A stretch of DNA of 64,000 nt from Setaria digitata (taxonomy: Eukaryota > Nematoda > Chromadorea > Rhabditida > Setariidae). The stretch is from NCBI GenBank assembly GCA_003640385.1, contig RCAB01000001.1, forward strand, positions 1,116,001-1,180,000, in the 5' to 3' direction. Positions 5,493 to 49,651 of the stretch are shown here, piece by piece (within the stretch, counting starts at the first letter, position 1; every line of letters starts with the position of its first letter). The notes below the pieces were generated by a model. That model was not told the origin of the DNA, did no database searches, and worked only from the letters and a program-made list of their open reading frames with translations. A program made the translations under genes and the position numbers.

Positions 5493-8400
5493 TCATGGAT
5501 GGTAACGCGATATGCTGAATCGAGAATGGCAGAAACGACAGGAATGCAAATCGAGAGTTAAAGTCGACGATGATAATGATTCTGCATTCTGGTCTATATA
5601 CCTGCAATACTTACCAGCTTGAATTTAACCATGCTTTATATTTTACCAAACTTGTGGAGATAAACAACTGTACTCTAATAAATCCAAAGAAAAAAAACCA
5701 TTCCTTAAACCAATTATTTACCATTCTCCAATGATTCCACCTGTTGTTCTACGTTCTAGCACGAAAATCTTGAATCAAATGAGATCTTACCGAATCCATC
5801 GAATATCAGCAGGGATAAATGGAATTACATGTTTCGATATATGGAAATTATCGATGATAAAGGCATCACGATCGAAATTTTTTGCTTTCCTTTGCATCAA
5901 ATTTGCATATAATTCAGATACAAGTACAACCTAAATTAATATATTTGAATGGTATGTTATCACTAAATTAATAGATGGAAGATGTTGTGAAACTTCTCTT
6001 GGAATGACTACGATTATAAATATTCTATACTTCCCAAAATCAAAAGATGCAATTTCGGATATCGGAAAGTTAACCTTTCCTCCAACGACCGCCAACGCAG
6101 AGCGAGCATCCTGTATTTTCCTGCCGAAGTAATGAATTTTACGAATATATTGTACACCGACCAAATCAATACACATTGTTGTGATCGCCAAGCCTAGGAA
6201 ATGTTATCTCACGATATTTTTACACAACTTGATTTTTAGATGAAATGCTAAATAGAGGATTTCCTTAATTCATCTCCGAAATTTTGAATTGAAATTTTTA
6301 GTTTCAATTTTTATTTTCACAAATTCTAGATGACGTTTTTATATTTTATAGAAAGAAGCAGAAAGAAAATCAAAAGCAACGCGAAAAAGAATGCAGCAGT
6401 ACCATCATAACGTTTTATATATTTTAATTATACTTGTTAATCAACAGATTTTGTGTTTGTATATGCTTTAACGAACCTAAAATAATGTAAAGTAAAATGA
6501 GGTACATATAACCATCCCGTCGAGGCATCAAGTCGCCGAACCCAACCTGAAAGAGTAAGTTTATAATCTCTTTAAAATTTTTCTTTATATAAAATACTGA
6601 AAGGTTTCAACTTTTATTTTCAAAAATTCAGTGTCTGTGACAATACTAATAATGGATAAGAAAGGTAATGAAGATAATGGTAAAAGTGATAAATTAGGAA
6701 GAGAGAGAAAAAGAACTTACGGTGGTCATTGTAATAAATGACCAGTAAAATGCAGTAAAAAAGCTCCAAGGTTCTAAGTTGGACATGAGCACACCTCCCA
6801 GAGATGTGTATGCAACAAGTATTACCAGCACCAACATTGCCGGTATCCTGCAACTAATCCAGCCTGACAGTGGTACGAAAATTAATTATGCCATGGCACT
6901 GCAATTGAAGTCAACAGTACTTACCTTTGTTCTTCAATAAAATGCATGTTGGCACTAAGGCCCTGTCTTTGGCACTGTTGGCATACTCTTTCCCTGTGGT
7001 CTTTGCGCAAGTGGCGCCTTTCCCACAAGAAATGCTTCAGTTTGAGGTAGTTACCATACATCCACACCAGGTGCTCACTTAGAAATTTACCAATATCTGC
7101 TATAGTCACCAGTGTCAAAGGTATTCCAAACAGTGAAAATATAATGCACATCATGCGGCCTAGCTGAGTTACCGGCACCGGATTACCGTATCCTGAAAGG
7201 AGATGTTGTAGAAAGTTTGTTTGTGAATTAATATAATAATGAGTTTAATGAGTGTGTGGTGGTGGGAAGTAATTAAAGTTCTAACAAAATAAAATCCGAA
7301 AGTCTTACCAATAGTGGTGACAACAGTGACGGCGAAAAAGATAGCAGTTGAGAAAGACCATATTTCAATAGTGTCATTAGCACGAACTTCGGCAGCTGTT
7401 AGGAAGAATTTTTCAAAGGCGTTGAAAAGATGATCGCTCATATTATGCATATGTTGCTTGGTTACTTGAGACCATACCTCACGTCGAGTCTCATTGAGCA
7501 TTGCCAAGGTAAACAATGAATTCACGAACTCCTCCTGTCGCTCGTAGATCATATCCAACTAAATATTACCTTCAGAGTCACGATTCGCAACACAGTTATC
7601 TTTTTCTACAGTGCTCCGGTACCTCCCAACAGCGCTGTAATTAAGGTCAGTCCCACCTGCTTGGAATTAATTACCTGTCGCCTTTTGCTTGCCAGCTCGT
7701 GCGGTTGCTCAACACTGTAAAATATCGAAGCGCCAACTACAGTATAGGCACAGGTTAACAACACCAGGCCAACATGCGGTAAAATGAGTTTCGCATACTG
7801 AAATGGAATAACAGTCTTTCCAAGTAAGATTGATTTGCACCTAATATGTCCTTCCCTTCAGCTCAATTGTGGCATAGTTGGGACTAGCTCAGTTCTAGGA
7901 TCGATTTGTACACACGACTTTAAAATCAATCAATCTGATTCTTTTTTTTTTGACTCATAAAGAAACCTTCAGTTGAATCGAATGCTGTGTGCAATAAAAC
8001 ATATTTTTCCTAAAATAGCAAACGAGTGTAAAAAAGTTTGTGTTGAAAAATTCATACAGCTATCAACTTCAGAAACTTCGCTATTGTGACCATTCCTGCT
8101 CTTTCCATATTTTTTTTTTCTTTTTTTTGGCATTCTTCGACAACTCATTCAGAATCTTTTGCAAGAAGAAACAAACGGTAGCATTAGGCACACAACTCAA
8201 CTAAACGACTGCTTGTCAGGTTATTAAGAAGAATCTGATTGACATCAGCTTACTCCGACAACTCAATCTTAGAGCAAAAGTGCAAGCAAGCAAATAGCAA
8301 ATTCTTTCATCTCATCTCTTCCTATGCTCAAATGCTGCTGGTGATAATGATGGTGCTTTGGCTTAGAATCATAATTATAAATGACAATGGTAGTTCGGTA

Positions 8401-21337: not shown

Positions 21338-22631
21338 ATAATAATGGGAAAAAGGGCTCGCTAATATTTGTTGGATTTATATGATGTATTTGGAACAGTG
21401 ATGTACGCGACATTTTTCTGAGGTCGACTGTTACAGGCATTTGCATTTCTGATAATGGTCAATTTACAAATGCATCATTTTTATAACTAGTCTTTTAGCA
21501 AGAGAGTTACGTTGTCTACAAGGAAAAGTATAGCGTGGACATTTTCCATGAAACTCTAGCTGACATTTTTATGATAGCCGGATTTTAAACGTGATAAATG
21601 GGGAAGTTGGTTGGGCAACTTCTGTCGGCATTAAGCTTTCGTACTTAACAGTTTACCAAGATATTTTTTCAAATCATCCAACATAATTTCGGAAAGAATA
21701 TGAAGGAAATATTTGCAAAGTGATTGTGACGTAGTATCTTTTCTTCTCGTATGTTGATTTCGTGGTTGTGCTGATGGTTTTCTTTTATTTGTTAAGTTCA
21801 TAGTGGTGTAGAACGGGATAGATTTTAAATATATCGCGTATTTTATGTAACATTTCCTTTTGTTTCTCCTATTTTCCGGTGTTTTTTTTCCTACTCAACT
21901 GTTATTTGGATCCAATAATTTGTGGTTTGAAGGTTATGTGTAAATTTGACTTGTCTAAAAGATTATTGTTGATACACGTTAAATCCAAGTAGCTTTACTT
22001 GAGCCTTTATTCGTGTCGTTTGATGTTTCAGGTTTGGTTTTTTTTTTAGATTCTTTTTTTACTGTACTGCACTATAATGTGCTAAAATAAACATGCCGCG
22101 ACAGCTTTTTTTTTTTTTTTTTTTTTTTGTATGTGTGCTTTACTTGTTACAACCAAAAAGAATTACATTTATTGTGGTTATGGTACAGGAATTAGATTAT
22201 TCTGAATAAGTAAGTAAGAATTAATACTCGAGAAGTGTGTTGCAAGTTTTTATACTGTTTGCACAGTATATTCCAACCTTATAATTTCTCCATTAAGCAT
22301 TTGTTAACTATTATGATGGCGTGGTTTCTGTGTCATAGTGCGGAGCTTCTTTTTTAGTTTCGGGTCTTTTTCTTTTCTTGTGAACGCTCGGGGTTTTCTT
22401 TAATGTCAATCTTCTGAATGATATGGATGAACGTCGATAAGAGTTTTAGACAGGTCGATTTAATGGTTCTAACATCTGTTATAAATATTGGGTAGTTGTG
22501 TTATGACTTTACCACTTAAAACTGACAGTAAGTGCTGCTGGGTGTGGTATCAGTTTGTGTCATTCAAGTTTTATTAGCAGTTTCTCACCGTCGTCTTCCA
22601 CTTTTAGGTTTGGAATCTTTGTAAAGGGACA

Positions 22632-25600
22632 ATGGACGATGGTAAAATAATTTTGATCGGTAATGAAGGTGATATTTTACATTGTGGATATAGTCACACC
22701 CTAAGCGATGGTGGTAAAAGGTGAATATTTGAAGTTTATAATGCTGGCTTTTTCAAACAGAAGTTGGTGTGCATTAGTGCTTTTAAATTACAGATATCCG
22801 TCAGCTGATCACTATGCTCATGCAATGATTCTCACACAACTCGGTTTGGATGAAGCACTAATTCTGGAGTTATTGTGCACTTCAAGTGCTGATGTCCCAA
22901 TCAAGGTGCACTTTCGCTTTTTTTTTTTATGTTTTTTGGTTCACTTGAATCCTTGTAATCTTCTTCAGTACGCTTCTTGAAGGCCCGTCAGTTATTACAA
23001 GAAAATATGCCAGCTGGACATGATATGAATTCTCTAGCTAGTTACCTACAGACAAGTCGTCAATCGTATACAATGCAAGGATTGAGGATACGCGTGGAGC
23101 AAGATGCAGGTAAATGGGATGAGTAAAATTTAGAGATTAAATAATCCATATTTCAAGAATGACTAATTCATTGTATTATTTATTACAACGACTTTCAAGC
23201 TTTTGAAAAAGCTTTGATGGATACGAAGGATGCATTGTTGATTGTTTGCGATGCACGCGACAGCGAGCTTGGCATTGGCATGGATGAAGATACTTTTGTG
23301 GATTGGATGGCAAAAGAGAAGGTTGATGCTACAATGTTGGGACATTGGATGCGCAATGAAAGAGGTCGACCACCACAACTGGGGCATAATCAGCTGGGAT
23401 ATTTTCTTATGTGGCTAAGGTAAGTTGTATTATTTCACAGTTCATTATGAGATATATTTTTCTTTTATTTTTCGGAATGCGAAAACAGATTTGAGCTTTG
23501 AATTTTTATATATTATTTTATAATTACTGTGGAGAAAAAATTACTTTTGTGCACTGTAGACACAAATCTGAAAAAAAGCAGTTTTGTGGAAATTGTGCTT
23601 TCTTCTGTGTTTATCACTTTTCTCTTCAATAGATATGAGGTTTCGGAAAAAAAACGAGCTGCATTACTTAGCACGCAGTCTATTGAAGTGGATGGTATTT
23701 CAACTGACCAGAATGGTGACACAGTGAAGACAACCACTTCTGATTTGGTCCTTTCACTTCAAGTAAATTCGTTGGCGTTCTTTCCGTACTAATGGTTTTG
23801 GTTGAAGATAAACTGGATTCTTTCTCTACTTTTTCTTCAGGGCATCTTTCGACCTCTAAGTAACTATTTCGCATTACCTTTTGATATGAAAGGAGAGAAG
23901 TACAGATCAGTGGAACATTACGCCTATCAAAGGCTTTTTGATGCCCTTCGCCTCGACGATAAATGCATTGGTGAGTTAACGACGGTCTAAGCCGTTTTAT
24001 TGGGATTATTTTAATATTATCTTGTAGGTATTTCATAATTCTTTGCTTAAGTAGTTTCATACCATTATTAATTGCAGAAAAAATTCGAACCACTGTAGAT
24101 CCAGTAGATGTCACACTTGTTGCCAGAAGAGTTTTTAAACAGCAAAAGGTATTTCTGTGATATCAAAAAGCAATTACTTGGAAAATTGGGGTGTTCTGTT
24201 TATTTCATTCTAGCTTGTTTGTTATATGCATATATCACTTTGTGCATTCTTAATTCCGATTTTTTCCTTCTTTTCCTTTCTTTTTTTTTTTTTTTTTTTA
24301 ACGGTTTATGTGGGTGGTGTGACTTGACGTTGGTTGGATTAGCTGTTTCGAAAAACCTATGTGAGGTCTTAGTACATTACTACAAAAAGATTTTTGAATG
24401 AATGGAGTTTTGACAATAGTGATAATTTTGCATCTTGTATAATATGATTTAATACCAAATAAATCTATTAATGAATTTTTAAATATCCTCATTCTGCAGC
24501 TCAGTGATGGAGCAGTGGAGTCAAAAATGGGTCGTCTAGATCGATGGCGTCAGTCTGCTATGAAACACAAGGTCTCATTTCTTTACACCTTAAAAGCTAT
24601 CCGCATTTTATTTTGTTTTTATTCCCATTATTTTTATTTTCACAGATGACGAAGAATGAAGCTTTGCAACAGTTACTTCTTTCTACTGGTCATGCACTGT
24701 TGATCGATACTACAGAAAGTGATAAAGCATGGGCATCTACAGCAGACGAATTCGAACTACAGCATTTGTTGACGAAACGGTACATTCTTCCAGGCACAAT
24801 CATCGACTGGATGACAGAACGAACAAAGCCTCCATCAGCTCTTTCTCATATCAGAGTTTGTTTCATTATCAGAAATACCATCCAGAATTTCTTATTTATA
24901 TTAGTATAAATTGTTGGTTGAAGGTAATTAACATCAACTTGTGAGAAAATCAATGTTAGTTACTATATAAAGAACACATTCAAATCCCAGTGTTGTGCAG
25001 CTTGGTCTCTTTTACTGTTGCTGCAATACCGGTGACAAAGAAGAAGTAAATGAAATGTCGGATTGAAGGAATTTGTGGTTTTATTTCCAGGGAAATAAGA
25101 CAGGACTGTTACTGATGGAGCTGCGTTCTAAATTTGCTGCGTTGTCGCCAACACAAAATCGTATTCCATTAGTATCACCACTTACAACAGCAATGGAATT
25201 AAGAACTTTATTGTCAGCCCATATGATATGTTTCACTGCGGAAAGCGTTTTTCATTTTTTATATCCAGCACAAATTCGTTTGCCAAATTCAGCAGAAACG
25301 TTGCCTTCACCAACCCATTACATAGCCAAGCAGGCTATAAGGTATGAAAGCTGATATTGCAATTTTCATTTCGTGGTAAATTTTTTTGTTCTTCCAATTT
25401 TTTCTACTCTGTTACCAACTATTATAATAGTTCAAGTGATAAGATCTCCAATACTATTTGGTATAATATTCCATTTTATGTCTTTAATAGTCTGTAATAA
25501 TTTTTTTTTTTTATTGGAACGTAATTTGAGGTAACTCTGAGGAAGTTATTTAAATCAAATTAAATATATAAAGTAAACAAGAAGAGTCATTCCATTCATA

Positions 25601-28011
25601 TTTAAGCAATTTACAAAAGTTTTAGTATAGTACATCGTAAGGCAGCTTGAAAAACAGTTTGTTTTAGGTATTTCAATGTTTGTGCTGAAGAGGCTGCGTA
25701 TATAAATGAGAGTGTCCACAGTACGGAATGTTGGTATAGGATGAATACTGCAGTTGAATTAAGTAATCCAACGCTTGATAAAGTTCAGGTTAGTATCTTC
25801 CAGACATATTTCGAAGGGATTTTCCATAATTTAGTATTTTTCGACTGAGAATGACAAAAATTTTTCATTTCGTATTGCTTATAAGTAATTCATAGAAGAT
25901 TGTAGGCATGAACTACTTTAATTTTATTGAGGATATTACTATTTTAACTTTAAAATTTCGTCTCACTTCTAAATTTTGCTGTATATTCTGCAGAAGCATG
26001 CTTATCAGAAGATGGTGTTTGATTCCGTGCGGTTTTCTAGGGTTGGTACATGGATGAGCGTCAGCGTGCGATCAAAGTTGCATTAACGATGATGTTTGAA
26101 CAGCATCCTCCACTCATGAGGGCTTTACTAGATACGGGAGATGCATTGCTGGTTTACTGCTCGAGGTATTCGTCACTAGAAGCTGAACTCACTATTGGCA
26201 TGAGAGAACGAGATTTACGTGCTTGGCTGGCACAAATTGACATCGATACAAGACAGGTTGTAGCATGCACAGCGTTCTCTACAAGTATTAAATATTAAAA
26301 TTTTAAGCTGAAAGACAGAAATATATCAAATATGAACTGTTGGTTGAAATTTTTAAAATATCAGATTTTGGAAATTGCTTGTATCATAATGCGCAAATTG
26401 ATGCGCCATACATTCATTAAAATTCAACATGACTATTATATTATATTGAGAATTGAAATGAAAATATTATGAGAATGAAGAGATTAACACCATGTTGAAT
26501 TTTTAAAATGAACTTACACTAATGTTCATTTTATTACAGCTTTTTGACTCGACAGTTCGTCCGCTGGCGTTTCGGCCTCCATATCTCGGTGGAAATCGAT
26601 TAGGATTAATCTTGATGGAAATAAGACGAGAATTTATGTTGCGTGGAGTTTTTCCGCAGCAACTTCCTGAACTCCAGATTGGTGTTGAGGCGGTTTGTTT
26701 TTGCAGGATGTAAAATTTATACAGTCATGCGGAATTAATATTTTTAATTCTTTTGCTCGTAACTTTCAGGTCCTTGGTTCTGAATCACCGGCTGAAAATT
26801 ACGTATCAGTTTATCCATTTGATGTATTAGATCCTGACAATTTCTCAGCGCTTTGGACAAGTAAAGATTGTCTTGTGCTTAATTCCCTGATGAACTCTTT
26901 TTTTTCATAGTTTGATTCTGACAGTTCACTTTTATAATTCAGCTAATCAGTGACATCAATTTCAGTAGCTGAGTTGCAAGGATCCATTCTAGATCTTATT
27001 ACTTAATTTATTTTGTAGTTCATTCTACGTTGTCCACATGGTAAATTTTTTCCCTAAGTGTCAAACAGTACCACTGGAAAAGCAACCCTTTTCAGTCGAA
27101 GTGAAGGTAATCATCAATTACAGATCCATTTTTGTTGCTCGCGAAGCAAAACAAAGATAGTGAACTTTGGACGCAAGCAAATTCGATTAAGCTGGCACCA
27201 AAGTTAATATCGATCAATGAAACAACACTTTCTGCTATAGTTGAGGGTAGGCACATAATTTGATCGGGTGATACTGCTTTATTTCAGAAATCGGAATGTT
27301 TTCCATACATTTCTTGGTAAGCGGTAACAAGATATATTATTCTCTTTTATTTATAATATTAAGCTTTCAGATGTTTTCTAACTTGAATTTTTTAGAGTTG
27401 GATATTATGGAAAAAGTTACAGAGGAGGATCTGGAAAACTATTCAGTTGAAGATCTTCGTGCTGTTTTCGTCCGCTTAGCCCTTCGAATGCGAAATCGTT
27501 TGGCTGAAACTGAGGCACAACAAAGCGAAATGAATCTTCTAGCCAGAGAAATTACTGCAATGCAAAATATGAGGCGGTAAATAACTTATATGGAATAGAC
27601 TAAAGGAATGAGATATCACAATTTACTATTAAGACCGTAACTCAATCTAGTCAGAACTTCAATTTCAGAGCATTAGAAGAAAGAAAAGCACAGTTGGAAG
27701 GTCCCACGCCGGAACGAAGGGAAAAGAGAGAACCTCCAGCACCATTAGCACGAACAGAACTACCAGTACCTCTAATGCGTGGTTATTCTCCGCCTCGGAA
27801 GTGGGATGAGAAACGTAAGCCAACGCAGCGACGATACTCACCTCCTGATGAAAAGGTGTCTCGGCGGCGTAGCCCTGCTCGTCCAAAATCGCCCACTCAC
27901 GCATCTCGGAAATCATCACCTTCTTCAAAATCACCATCGAAACAACAGAAGGCAACGAAACCTCCTATTGACGAAAGTGAACTGTCTGATGGGGAAATCC
28001 TAAGCGACTGA
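22632..28011 (+). CDS. Triple-NADAR protein with coiled-coil and SR-like tail
   Basis: Eighteen exons in phase, 897 residues: 22632-22720, 22794-22905, 22983-23109, 23200-23419, 23633-23762, 23841-23970, 24078-24148, 24500-24571, 24646-24855, 25091-25341, 25668-25788, 26041-26256, 26540-26692, 26770-26860, 27124-27246, 27288-27316, 27371-27576 and 27669-28011. NADAR domains (YbiA-like, formerly DUF1768) are known for hydrolysing N-glycosidic bonds; some remove ADP-ribose from guanine in nucleic acid. Unit 1 (about residues 1-182) has RYPSADHY, then LMDTKDALLIV and a final GHNQLGYFLMWLR. Unit 2 (227-400) is the most canonical: RPLSNYF, YRSVEHY (247-253), LLLSTGHALLI, DKAW, and GNKTGLLLMELR. 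Unit 3 (about 430-613) has SPTHY, LLDTGDALLV and GGNRLGLILMEIRR. Residues about 725-790 are charged and coiled-coil-like (begins EKVTEEDLENYSVEDL). The last 100 residues are rich in R, S, P and K (RRYSPP, SRRRSPARPKSP) and end ELSDGEILSD. The join between the NADAR part and the tail (exons 15-16) is less certain; the tail could be a second gene. Confidence 0.85.
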
Positions 28012-37434: not shown

Positions 37435-40116
37435 ATGTTGATGAGAGGACGGGCTCGGACGATACTTCTGATTATTATAATTATGGGTGGTGCCCTATAT
37501 ATACTGATCTCGGCTTCTGCAATATCTCCCATTTTCGACATGGTTAAAAGTAATATTGTCATATTGCCTGGACGAAAAATAAATAACTTGTCGCAGTACT
37601 CACCACTTATTTTCATTGGTTAGTCTTTTTCTGACTTAGTATGATTTAGTCATAAGGCTTCATTTATTTATTTATTTATTTATTTTTTTTGCCAATGCTC
37701 AACCAACCAACCTAATGCGGAAACATTTCTGAATTGCTGTAATGATCTTATCAGTATATGTACCATTAGAAAATTTCTCCGTGTTTGTAAAGTGAAATTA
37801 TTCCTACTTCTTTATTGTGTTCTACCGATTCGCTTTAGTTCCCGTGGAATTTAGCTATCGATCTGCCAGATATCTTTATCTCAGAGGCTGATATCATTGT
37901 CTTCTGGAACCTTCTTTGATATATTTTTTAGGTGGTGTTCCGCGATCTGGAACAACACTGATTCGTGCTATGTTGGATGCACATCCTGCTGTGCGATGGT
38001 TTGTCCAATGCATATATTGTTTAAACGAAGAAAAATCTTAACTGATGATATCCTTCCTTTTTTCTGTTGGTGAGCACAAAGGATGCTATGTAAGGTATTA
38101 TTTTTATTATAGTGGTGAAGAGACACGCATAATACCGCGCATTCTGGGACTTAGGACACAGTGGAAAAAGAGCCAGAAAGAATGGAATCGATTGAAAGAA
38201 GCTGGTGTCACTGATGAAGTAATCAACGATGCCATCTCATCATTCATATTACAGGTATGTTACCAACAGTTTGGAAATGTAGTGAAAGCTGCAACTGTGA
38301 TATTATGATTTTGCAGGTAATAGCTGGTCATGGTGAACCTGCTGAAAGACTGTGCAATAAGGACCCTTTCACAATGAAGTCAGCGGAATATCTTGCTCAG
38401 CTGTTCCCAAATAGCAAATTTTTACTGATGATTCGAGATGGCCGAGCGACGGTTCATTCAATCATATCGCGTCAGGTAACGATAACGGGTTTCGATCTCA
38501 ACGATCCAAGACAGTGTTTGGATAAGTGGAACCGTGCTATTAAAATAATGTACGAGGTACTAGTTTAATACATTTTTTCTTTGTCAATTATTTTGTAAAA
38601 AGTGATATAAGAATGGGGATTTCTTAGTTATGAGCTATTTCGCATCATTACACGAAAAGCACTTAGGCCTATTTCGATCTCTGAAATCCACGTAACATAT
38701 TTAGCAATCTGTGGGAATGTAACTAATAGTTTACTTTTTTAATTATTTCCAAATCGCTGCTTACTTTTTTCTGAGACTGATTTTGAAATCAAGAAAAAAA
38801 TTATTAGTTACTTAAAGTCTAATATGTGGGTTTAATTAAGATAGAGAATATGTCTTGGTTACGCTTGTTAGCATTCAGACTTTTAATTAATTCATGCTAT
38901 AAACCAATTTTCAGCAATGCAAAGCAGTAGGTCGAAAGCGATGTTTAATGGTTTATTATGAGCAGCTGGTACTGCACCCAGAGCAGCAGTTGCGTCGTAT
39001 TCTTAGTTTTCTGGATGTTCCATGGAATGATCGGGTCCTTCATCATGACAAACTCATTGGCAAGGATATTTCGCTCTCTAAGTATGCTGTCTGTCTACTG
39101 CTTTTTTGCTCTTTATAAAGGGTCATTGTTTTATTTTTATTTTTTAAGTATGACCAGTTCCATTCTATAAAAATGAAATTGTTCTGTGCAACAAAATGTT
39201 TGACAACTAACAGAATCGTTTTGTCATTTTTTACAGTGCTCTACTGATGATGGTTAATTGCGGTTTTTGTCTTCTTGTATATTTCATTCTCCTAAAAGGA
39301 AAGATTGGTCATATCATTCCAGATCTTTCTGCTAACTAAGGATCCTTATTTTGAACTTTATAATCATTTCTCTTGTAGTAATGTTTCATCCATAAATATA
39401 AAGAAGTGATTAACAGCGTATGAACGAAGGAAAGCTCAGGAGAAAAAATTTAGCTAATATTTGTACAAAAATATGTATTAGTTACAGAACATGGTTTTTT
39501 TATATATTAAGAGAACGTACAGTTTTTCAGAGTTGAAAGATCAACTGACCAGGTAATCAAACCCGTAAACTTGGATGCATTAACCAAGTGGGTTGGTACG
39601 TTTAGTGAGGATATTATCCAGGAAATGGCTTCTCTAGCACCGATGTTAGCCGAACTCGGGTTCGTTATTCGTAACAGCCTTTGATGATTATAATGCCACC
39701 AATTTTGACTAATTTATGTGGTATGATATTTGTAGGGGTTGGAAGCATTACTTGTTTTTTGTTTTGTTCTTCTCTCTTTGTTTTTTCTTCTGTTTTTTGA
39801 GTAGTAAACTTATCTCATTTATTGTTTCATTCAGGTAGCCGTTTTGAGCCTGGAAAATTTTCCAATAAATTCGATGTAAACGGAATTCTTGACAAAAAAG
39901 AAAGTCTTTCCGGAGCGGGATGAGCTATTCTGATAGGTAATATCTCCTTTCAGATATGATCCAAATGCTAATCCACCCAAATATGGTGAACCTGATCCGA
40001 TTGTTCTAAAGAATACTGATGAGTTGCACATGAATATGAAAGAATGGGAGCGTCGAGCGAAAGAAGTGGTTGCTCCAGCAGTGATAGCTGTTCCGGCTCC
40101 TCCACTTGCACGATGA
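37435..40116 (+). CDS. Protein-tyrosine sulfotransferase (TPST)
   Basis: Type II Golgi membrane enzyme that transfers sulfate from PAPS to tyrosines of secreted and membrane proteins. Seven exons in phase: 37435-37618, 37932-37998, 38113-38254, 38317-38556, 38915-39081, 39531-39659 and 39954-40116, 363 residues (human TPST1 is 370). A short basic N-tail (MLMRGRAR) precedes one membrane segment (about residues 9-28). The PAPS 5'-phosphosulfate loop is [20 protein letters not shown], followed by [17 protein letters not shown] with the catalytic Glu. The 3'-phosphate site is [18 protein letters not shown]. Other family blocks are [47 protein letters not shown] and [15 protein letters not shown]. 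Intron 6 begins with GTTCGT, a weak donor; reading through it would replace the last 54 residues with a short tail and stop. The first in-frame ATG after a TTTCAG acceptor was taken as start. Confidence 0.96.
37661..37690. repeat. (TTTA)n microsatellite in TPST intron 1
   Basis: About six TTTA units followed by a T run, inside the first TPST intron. Confidence 0.7.
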
Positions 40117-41566: not shown

Positions 41567-44396
<2,830 letters not shown>

Positions 44397-47829: not shown

Positions 47830-49651
47830 TTAAAGAGTGCCAGCAGCTTTCATTGCCATTCTAACAGCCTTGCTAGCAGGTCGAAATACCTGAAATGTCG
47901 GTAGATTCGAAGACTGATTCGCAAAGGGAAGGGAACCACATTTCCTGTTCTATTCATCTATTACCTGTTCAGGAGAATTCGTGTACCTGGAAAGAACAAT
48001 TCATGTCTTCAGAAATGGTCATTGTCCCACCAGCATTATCAAACTGTCCGCAGTAGTGTGGTGCTGAGAAGATCGTAACGAGGCGTCGATTCGCAAAGAA
48101 CTCATATCCATCCTGTACCACCTGATGAGCTCGTGCAATCAGATCTAAGTCCAACTTCTGGCAAATATCTACAACAACATCCTGTCCGAATGTGTATGAC
48201 GCACCACGAGTATTCGCCTGCCAACCTTTTACCCACTGGTCTGGATCGGACCTGTAAGTAACTAAGATGCCCTTCAAATTCTACCCAAAATGCGATAAAA
48301 TAGAAGTGTGTGGTAACCACCAAAGCAGATCGATTTCCATAGATGGATTGGGTGGATCAATTGGTCGGGGTAGGTTACGAAGCTGGTCCAAGTTATTCAG
48401 ATGAGGTGACAAGCCACCATGCATACACAGAATTCGTCCACCAATATAACCACAAAGAGGCATCCAGTTGAATGTGTCCTGAAAGAGAACAGAAAAAGTC
48501 ATACCGACATTTTGTTTCATTGGGAAGCCAAGCGAAATACTTGAAAAGCGTTCCACAGGCGAGTCGAATGATATCTGCGATTACATTCTTCGAAAAAACC
48601 GTATACGCGATTGATAGCCGATGTCTCGTGATTTCCTGCAATTTTCCTAATTGCTCTAGACATATCATCCACAAACCATGAATTGCTTCAGCAGTGATTA
48701 TAGATATTCAAGTTAATATTTTGGAATCTAAAAGGTAAATCTATTTGGCCGTAGTGAAAGGGTTAATTTTAATTTAGTTAGCAGACCTCTGAGCATGAAG
48801 AAATTTTCGGGATATTTGATTTTATAACAAAATTGCAGACATATGGTTTCGATGTTCTGCTTTCCACGATCAACGAAATCGCCCAAGAAAAGATAATTAG
48901 ATTCCGGCGGGAAACCATTTCTATCATAAATACGGAGCAGGTCCGAATACTGTAATGCTTTCCTAATCGAAAATTTGCTTGCAATCTGGCTTTGCTGAAG
49001 TCTTCAAAAGAAAACTTCTTTGAAAAGAAGACATATCGAGACTGATCTGTACAAGAGTTATTCATTTCCAAAGTATTGCTACATTTTTGTAGCGTCTGGA
49101 TACTTGAAAGAAATACGAATACAAGGAATACTTGGCCGTGGATATCTCCGCAAACGACGAGAGGTGGATCTACTTCAATGAGGCTGCTTTGGCTTATGAA
49201 TACTTCTTTTGCTTTTTGGCATACTCGGTGAAGCTCCTCTTCAGCAACCTGTAGTCGCAGTTTCACTAACTTCCACAATCATTCAGTTCACTTCTGGTCT
49301 CACAATTACTGAGGTAGTTGGACGCAGCACCTCAAGTGATACTGATATGATGATATGGTGTTAGAGACGCAACGTCTAAACTTTATACGAGACTCCCAGC
49401 TGCTTTTCTACATTAACAACAAAAAAACAAACTGCAAACGGTTGCTAGTACCCGCTAACTGCGTAAAATATCAAGGATTTACTTCTCATCAGTAATGAAT
49501 CATGCACGCCGGCTTAGAGAACACCGCGATTGCGACAAATGCTCACACCGGGACTTAAAAGGTCGAACTGTACCTGAGTTGTAAGACGCCCACCAGCCAT
49601 ACCCACATTCAGCAGGCGGCTAATCATATTATCAACATCAAATCCTGCCAT
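47830..49651 (-). CDS. Divergent PP1-type serine/threonine protein phosphatase
   Basis: Metal-dependent protein phosphatase of the PPP family, PP1-like. Seven exons in phase: 49651-49574, 49248-49132, 48949-48787, 48635-48541, 48478-48318, 48251-47987 and 47889-47830, 312 residues. Metal-site motifs are intact: GDIHGQ (60-65), GDFVDRG (88-94), GNHET (120-124), [24 protein letters not shown] and [13 protein letters not shown]. Compared with canonical PP1 (recalled), it has GNHET for [19 protein letters not shown] for [22 protein letters not shown] for FTFGAEVV and PHYCG for PNYCG. The C-terminus after CSFQ is short ([11 protein letters not shown] to stop). A Trp doublet at the exon 5/6 junction (LLWWSDPD) adds a residue unless another splice site is used. 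Nematodes carry expanded, often male-germline, PP1-like families, and this is probably one of them rather than the housekeeping PP1. Confidence 0.92.

What the first reader, a model, noticed from the sequence alone, without database searches (positions are those of the whole stretch)
22632..26860. Three consecutive NADAR units in one nematode protein
Seen: three successive segments each carry a (P/S)-x-x-HY block, an L-x-x-T-x-x-ALL block and a terminal GxNxxGxxLM block. Known: NADAR (YbiA/DUF1768) proteins are usually single-domain glycosidases, and some reverse guanine ADP-ribosylation in nucleic acids. A tandem triple array with an SR-like tail suggests a eukaryotic ADP-ribose-reading or -removing nuclear protein. 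I know of no described system like it, though I cannot search.
Basis: partly seen in the sequence, partly recalled or inferred. Interest (0 to 1): 0.85.

Follow-up and report, generated by a model that had tools for sequence, protein, structure and literature searches.

The report
Filarial copy of trans-splicing protein SNA-3
The gene encodes a worm protein with three copies of the NADAR fold, and it is the counterpart of SNA-3, a protein already known to be essential for attaching the spliced leader to nematode messenger RNAs.

Summary
The window carries a 17-exon gene, 22632-28011 (+), encoding 879 residues with three NADAR units and a disordered basic tail. It is the orthologue of C. elegans SNA-3 (C23G10.8): a nuclear, essential protein with three NADAR domains, likely part of the SmY snRNP, proposed to recruit the SL1 snRNP to capped nascent pre-mRNAs (PMC9303266, PMC11229312). 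Across 49 aligned orthologues, units 1 and 3 have lost most catalytic positions. Unit 2 keeps the pocket acids and tryptophan, but Leu replaces the lysine that hydrolysis needs in a characterised NADAR (47 of 48 rows with a residue there). I favour a scaffold or reader over a full hydrolase. One point absent from the main texts of the two SNA-3 papers: an 11-residue stretch at the end of the poorly conserved tail is the best conserved of nine stretches compared, and S[DE]GE[IL] lies in the last 40 residues of 50 of 56 homologues. It is one residue off the published ARS2-recruitment motif and suggests, unproven, how SNA-3 could contact the CBC-ARS2 complex.

The parts
22632..28011 (+). sna-3 orthologue, 17 exons, 879 aa (ATG 22632, TGA 28009-28011)
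   Evidence: Gene model with GT-AG introns; exon borders checked against 13 full-length or near full-length orthologues
22647..23419 (+). NADAR unit 1 (aa 6-182; exons 1-4)
23745..25144 (+). NADAR unit 2 (aa 221-405; exons 5-10), the only unit with the pocket Glu, acids and Trp (E251, D338, D343, W346)
   Evidence: Pfam 3.7e-10, over the cut-off; phmmer to YbiA 2b3w 4.2e-6; conservation
25217..26641 (+). NADAR unit 3 (aa 430-617; exons 10-13)
27396..27576 (+). exon 16: most of a predicted long helix after unit 3
   Evidence: AlphaFold model of the A. viteae orthologue, helix 723-776
27669..28008 (+). exon 17: end of that helix and disordered Ser/Pro/Arg/Lys-rich tail
   Evidence: pLDDT under 50 at 778-881 of the A. 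viteae orthologue; 3 RS/SR dipeptides in the last 115 aa
27985..27999 (+). SDGEI, ARS2-recruitment-like motif (aa 872-876)
   Evidence: S[DE]GE[IL] in the last 40 residues of 50 of 56 homologues
22600..22607 (+). ACTTTTAG, an acceptor-like site 24 bases before the ATG, possibly for the spliced leader
   Evidence: read directly in the sequence; no transcript evidence

Best explanation
The gene is the filarial orthologue of C. elegans sna-3. In C. elegans, SNA-3 works with SUT-1 and SmY RNAs at the 5' ends of capped nascent transcripts, associated with the cap-binding complex and ARS2, and is needed for SL1 trans-splicing; recruitment of the SL1 snRNP is the published model (shown or proposed there, not here). 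From the sequences I infer that three NADAR folds, made by duplication of one already modified NADAR before the sampled nematodes diverged, serve mainly as a scaffold. Units 1 and 3 are catalytically dead. Unit 2 keeps a conserved pocket that probably binds a ligand (an ADP-ribose-like or nucleotide group, or RNA) rather than hydrolysing it. The disordered tail probably reaches ARS2 through its conserved C-terminal S[DE]GEI motif. Likelihood of each step: SNA-3 orthology about 0.98; units 1 and 3 dead about 0.9; unit 2 not a hydrolase about 0.7 (a ligand reader about 0.4, no ligand about 0.3, hydrolase about 0.3; restated so that they add up); tail contacts ARS2 about 0.4.
For: 56 homologues at 39-92% identity, 48 of them with an organism name, all nematodes; two are named 'Protein C23G10.8', the sna-3 locus (PMC9303266). 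C. briggsae residues E251, D343, W346, W514, D559 and W574 fall exactly on the numbers mutated in C. elegans SNA-3. Three NADAR folds. The units are mutually homologous (hhalign E 4.7e-16, 1.4e-17, 4.2e-18, profiles of 7 orthologues each), and each unit forms one group in the tree of 23 orthologues. Catalytic positions: searches set against PMC11543638 (passages). Tail motif: against PMC10720265 and PMC9402713.
Against: No expression, localisation or binding data exist for this species here. In C. elegans, triple mutation of unit 2 (E251, D343, W346) gives near-complete sterility at 25 degrees only, and of unit 3 (W514, D559, W574) gives larval lethality; this fits catalysis as well as binding or folding. 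Unit 2 has an invariant K/R one residue before the lost lysine (48 of 48 rows with a residue), which might replace it. CBC-ARS2 recovery with SNA-3 was RNA-dependent, which speaks against a tight direct ARS2 contact, although SUT-1 pull-downs kept CBC-ARS2 with RNase. The tail motif has Ser where the published motif has Asp or Glu.
Confidence: 0.85

Rival explanations
1. Unit 2 is an active NADAR hydrolase that removes ADP-ribose or another N-glycosidic group from RNA or a small molecule during trans-splicing; the basic residue at E+6 replaces the lysine at E+7.
For: E251 in 48 of 48 rows with a residue there, Asp/Glu at 338 in 49 of 49, W346 in 49 of 49, K/R at 257 in 48 of 48. All four E. 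coli NADAR subtypes tested are active on ADP-ribosyl-guanosine in vitro, and K95R of E. coli C7 NADAR works in vitro. Mutating unit 2 impairs C. elegans SNA-3.
Against: Leu at the lysine position in 47 of 48, Phe in 1; that lysine is essential for efficient hydrolysis in E. coli C7 NADAR, and two other NADAR genes of the same genome keep it (C401, C7; read). Unit-2 mutants also have lower SNA-3 protein levels.
Confidence: 0.3
2. All three NADAR units are pure protein-protein or protein-RNA scaffolds with no ligand, and conservation of the unit 2 pocket is structural.
For: Units 1 and 3 show that the fold persists without the pocket. SNA-3 works with SUT-1 and SmY RNAs in an RNP (PMC11229312).
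Against: Pocket positions E251 and W346 do not vary in unit 2 while the E43 position drifts freely in unit 1 (D, V, N, I, E, T, L at 35).
Confidence: 0.3
3. The three units are neighbouring genes or an annotation fusion.
For: Only that the model here is spliced by eye and no transcripts were available.
Against: Relatives from many nematodes carry all three units in one predicted protein with the same order; C. elegans SNA-3 is a 937-residue protein whose single gene rescues the mutant.
Confidence: 0.02

Closest known systems
C. elegans SNA-3 (C23G10.8, UniProt Q9GYR5)
   Same: Three NADAR units, the positions mutated in C. elegans, distribution so far nematode only, C-terminal S[DE]GEI (seen in C. 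briggsae and other Caenorhabditis rows; the C. elegans sequence itself was not in hand)
   Different: 879 instead of 937 residues; the position of D559 is Glu here (E558); no functional data in this species
P. nicotianae var. parasitica NADAR (PDB 8bau) and E. coli YbiA (2b3w)
   Same: Fold of units 1 and 3 by structure comparison and of unit 2 by sequence; Glu at the E43 position and Trp at the W133 position in unit 2
   Different: No Lys at the K50 position in any unit (one residue earlier K/R in unit 2); 40-43 residues from the W133 position to the Asn of NxxG, against 10 in YbiA; three units instead of one
ARS2-recruitment motif proteins (Red1, ZFC3H1, ZC3H18, FLASH)
   Same: [DE]GE[IL] core in a disordered region, followed in most rows by Ser and acids; CBC-ARS2 as partner in pull-downs of the C. 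elegans protein
   Different: Ser instead of Asp/Glu at the first position; binding never tested

Membership tests
SNA-3 | three NADAR domains in one nematode protein | tested here: met
SNA-3 | sequence orthology to C23G10.8 | tested here: met
   hits named C23G10.8 at 55% (Haemonchus, 95% of the query) and 48% (Aphelenchus, 97%); of the 5 NADAR places found in the genome (best candidates only) only the window's belongs to a triple gene as far as read
SNA-3 | positions mutated in C. elegans (E251, D343, W346, W514, D559, W574) | tested here: met
   E251, D343, W346, W513, E558, W573 here; one conservative change
SNA-3 | nuclear, essential, needed for SL1 trans-splicing | not testable with these tools
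   known for C. elegans only
NADAR (PF08719) | curated score cut-off | tested here: met
   whole protein 88.6 bits and unit 2 alone 40.7 against 35.1; unit 1 alone 32.4 and unit 3 alone 30.8 lie below it
NADAR (PF08719) | NADAR fold in units 1 and 3 | tested here: met
NADAR (PF08719) | NADAR fold in unit 2 by structure comparison | tested here: inconclusive
active NADAR hydrolase | Glu at the E43 position | tested here: met
   unit 2: 48 of 48 rows with a residue; unit 1: 3 of 46; unit 3: 0 of 49
active NADAR hydrolase | Lys at the K50 position | tested here: not met
   unit 1: I/V/T/L; unit 2: L 47, F 1; unit 3: A/T/S/G
active NADAR hydrolase | acid at the E125 position | tested here: met
   unit 2: D 34, E 15; unit 1 is Val and unit 3 Tyr/Cys/Ser/Phe
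SR protein | RS-rich domain with an RRM (definition recalled) | tested here: not met
   3 RS/SR dipeptides in 115 residues; NADAR is the only Pfam family for the whole protein
ARS2-recruitment motif | [DE][DE]G[DE][ILV] | tested here: not met
   4 of 5 positions; first position Ser in 50 of 50 rows with the motif
ARS2-recruitment motif | direct binding to the ARS2 zinc finger | not testable with these tools
   no binding tool; an ARS2 search in the genome did not complete

The most novel reading that the evidence does not exclude
SNA-3 carries a nematode form of the ARS2-recruitment motif at its C-terminus, in which an invariant serine replaces the first acid and phosphorylation (a CK2-type S-x-x-E site) switches docking on. 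This would let the SmY snRNP compete with RNA-decay factors for ARS2 on capped transcripts. The middle NADAR pocket would have turned from an ADP-ribosyl-guanine hydrolase into a reader of a related group, such as the RNA cap.
Probability: 0.3. Interest if true: 0.6.

Novelty: already known. Interest (0 to 1): 0.3.

Why it matters
How nematodes bring the spliced leader RNA to its targets is a long-standing question, and SNA-3 is central to it. The window adds no new system. The comparison across orthologues does sharpen two testable points: which of the three units could be an enzyme (only unit 2, and not with the canonical residues), and a conserved C-terminal peptide that could explain the known link to CBC-ARS2. 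SNA-3 is essential in C. elegans and has so far been found only in nematodes.

Tried and rejected
Apparent frame break in unit 3: I first extended exon 12 upstream to 25994 because HAYQKM looked NADAR-like, which forced a break. I used that 894-aa model, with an X at the join (15 residues longer than the right one and X for one Gly), for the whole protein and for unit 3. The orthologues show that the exon begins at 26041, and the corrected model has no break. Pfam was repeated on the corrected model (88.6 bits whole, 30.8 for unit 3, against 86.9 and 30.1); the homologue search was not repeated.

SR protein: rejected. Setting: of 10 open frames near the gene scanned, one is SNA-3's own last exon and gave nothing, 8 gave no Pfam family, and one is sulfotransferase-like; of 10 frames further off, 5 gave a family and 5 none. 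Nothing there suggests a mobile element or a toxin-antitoxin pair, but most neighbouring genes were not identified. RNA genes in the window: no Rfam match at the gathering scores and no tRNA. A search with unit 2 alone brought 36 short proteins; 8 carry an organism name, all nematodes, 28 do not. Where the C7 single NADAR gene joins the three units is unsettled (long branches). A papers search for NADAR with NAD-capped RNA found 0 papers. A search for S-variants of the motif with ARS2 or Serrate found 56 papers holding two of four terms; the 12 listed hold neither variant. Two further structure hits lists (Foldseek) gave only 8bau and 2b3w at E 0.001 or better.
Full report
What is there. The window lies in a 75.6 Mb, 976-contig assembly without a name. 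The best named relative of the protein is Acanthocheilonema viteae at 92%, then Dirofilaria immitis at 88%, so a filarial nematode is likely. Splicing the plus strand by GT-AG sites and checking against orthologues gives 17 exons, 22632-28011, and 879 residues. The acceptors of exons 3 and 4 are TTGAAG and TTCAAG, less usual than the TTTCAG type, but orthologues keep the same residues across those joins.

Origin of the triple. The units align with each other over 161-168 columns at 22-25% identity (hhalign E 4.7e-16, 1.4e-17, 4.2e-18; profiles of 7 of the orthologues each). In a tree of 23 orthologues, chosen from the 49 aligned, plus two other NADAR genes, each unit is one group (support 94/97, 94/99, 98/99; 100% of 200 bootstrap trees). 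So the triplication predates the sampled nematodes, Plectus included, in agreement with the published statement of domain-specific conservation (PMC9303266, passage). All three units have 40-43 residues between the position of W133 and the Asn of NxxG (133 to 173, 346 to 389, 561 to 602), against 21 in the C401 NADAR of the same genome and 10 in YbiA. They therefore probably descend from one already lengthened NADAR. A single-unit NADAR gene on contig C7 aligns with unit 1 (E 2.8e-7) and unit 2 (E 2.1e-12) and may be a relative of that ancestor; its exons were joined by eye.

It is SNA-3. Of 56 homologues, 48 carry an organism name, all nematodes, and 8 do not; two are named Protein C23G10.8. 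PMC9303266 (abstract, passages, and sections 27 and 28 part 1) names C23G10.8 SNA-3: 937 residues, three NADAR domains, essential, nuclear, conserved throughout nematodes and without detectable homologues outside them. [quoted passage not shown] C. briggsae residues at our aligned columns carry exactly the published numbers 251, 343, 346, 514, 559 and 574. PMC11229312 (abstract, discussion and passages) places SNA-3 and SUT-1 with SmY RNAs at the 5' ends of capped transcripts and proposes recruitment of the SL1 snRNP. PMC13129544 (passages only) reports a 280-fold loss of trans-spliced product in extracts depleted of SNA-3. PMC11125620 (passages and section 5) already lists SNA-3 as a three-NADAR protein. 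The finding is therefore known.

Can the units be enzymes? PMC11543638 (passages) gives the residues around ADP-ribose in P. nicotianae NADAR: E43, K50, W89, E125, D130 and W133 among others. In E. coli C7 NADAR, D171 (the E125 position) and K95 (K50) are needed for efficient hydrolysis; E88 (E43) is needed for toxin rescue in cells, with only a minor effect of E88A, but loss with E88Q, in vitro. Over 49 aligned orthologues (gaps excluded): unit 1 has D 20, V 10, N 5, I 3, E 3, T 3, L 2 at E43; I 42, V 2, T 1, L 1 at K50; V in 46 of 46 at E125; it keeps an acid at D130 in most rows (D 38, N 7, E 1). Unit 3 has A 29, I 7, V 6, M 4, T 2, S 1 at E43; A 41, T 3, S 3, G 2 at K50; Y 33, C 9, S 5, F 2 at E125; it keeps E 33 or D 16 at D130 and W in 45 of 49 at W89. 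Unit 2 has E in 48 of 48, L 47 and F 1 at K50, D 34 and E 15 at E125, D 41, E 6, A 1, R 1 at D130, and W in 49 of 49 at W133. The residue before K50 is K 26 or R 22 in unit 2. Units 1 and 3 were placed on these positions through the unit-unit alignments; for unit 2 the stretch from E43 to K50 is free of gaps against both solved structures. As a comparison within the genome, the C401 and C7 NADAR genes keep Lys at this place. Units 1 and 3 are thus very unlikely to be hydrolases of the known kind; unit 2 could only be one through its shifted basic residue. C. elegans mutants show that units 2 and 3 matter, which does not by itself show catalysis, because unit 3 lacks the catalytic set and its mutant is still lethal.

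The tail. The last 100 or so residues are predicted disordered and poorly conserved (mean column identity 0.43 over residues 779-868 of the A. viteae row), but residues 869-879 of that row (881 long) are the best conserved of the nine stretches I compared (0.80, against 0.68-0.70 for the units; columns with fewer than 20 letters left out). S[DE]GE[IL] occurs within the last 40 residues of 50 of 56 homologues. The six without it (P0020, P0035, P0048, P0052, P0055, P0056) have unrelated or short C-termini and may be incomplete models. In shuffled tails a comparable motif, with Asp, Glu or Ser first, appears in the last 20 residues at a rate of 0.00045. The published ARS2-recruitment motif is [DE][DE]G[DE][ILV] (PMC10720265, passage), with a crystal structure for Red1 (PMC9402713, sections 11 and 14); changing the first Glu of the Red1 motif to Arg abolishes binding. 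The Red1 peptide in PMC8187409 continues with Ser and acids (passage) much as SNA-3 does. SNA-3 has Ser at the first position in 50 of 50, so the strict motif is not met. S-x-x-E is a CK2-type site (recalled), and CK2 subunits KIN-3 and KIN-10 are listed among proteins recovered with SNA-1; a phosphoserine could stand in for the acid, which is inference. I saw no 'EDGEI' or 'DGEI' in the main texts of the two SNA-3 papers; their supplements were not read. Against a direct contact, SNA-3 recovered CBC-ARS2 in an RNA-dependent way; for it, SUT-1 did so with and without RNase.

Verdict. The protein is already known as SNA-3. The enzyme reading is weakened for two units and open for one. The possible ARS2-docking motif is a modest new lead that needs a binding test.

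Noticed in passing
L001/L004 (contig C401), L002 (contig C190), L003 (contig C7) of the same genome: Three further NADAR genes, single-unit as far as read. C401 and C190 keep Glu, Asp and Trp at the E125, D130 and W133 positions; C7 has His, Asp, Phe there; C401 and C7 keep the Glu and Lys of the first motif, which was not resolved in C190. The C190 gene is followed by an Arg/Ser-rich frame.
   Followed up: partly
window 42801-43106, minus strand: RAD51 recombinase fragment (Pfam 1.6e-19), about 650 bases from a 370-base AT microsatellite at 41777-42147.
   Followed up: no
window 47972-49278, minus strand: Serine/threonine phosphatase exons (Pfam STPPase_N and Metallophos).
   Followed up: no
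window 38042-38565, plus strand: Sulfotransferase-like exons (Pfam Sulfotransfer_3, 1.3e-4 and 8.3e-16).
   Followed up: no
window 6924-7244, minus strand: Ion channel fragment (Pfam Ion_trans_2, 3.5e-10), possibly a two-pore potassium channel (my guess).
   Followed up: no
SNA-3 unit 3, residues 553-571 of the orthologue alignment: R553, E560, G564, R566, E567 and R571 do not vary in 49 rows although most catalytic positions are lost: a possible new binding surface.
   Followed up: no
P0044 and P0037: Meloidogyne and Aphelenchoides predictions combine SNA-3 with other domains (PF00076; PF05172 and PF14605); these may be gene-model fusions.
   Followed up: no
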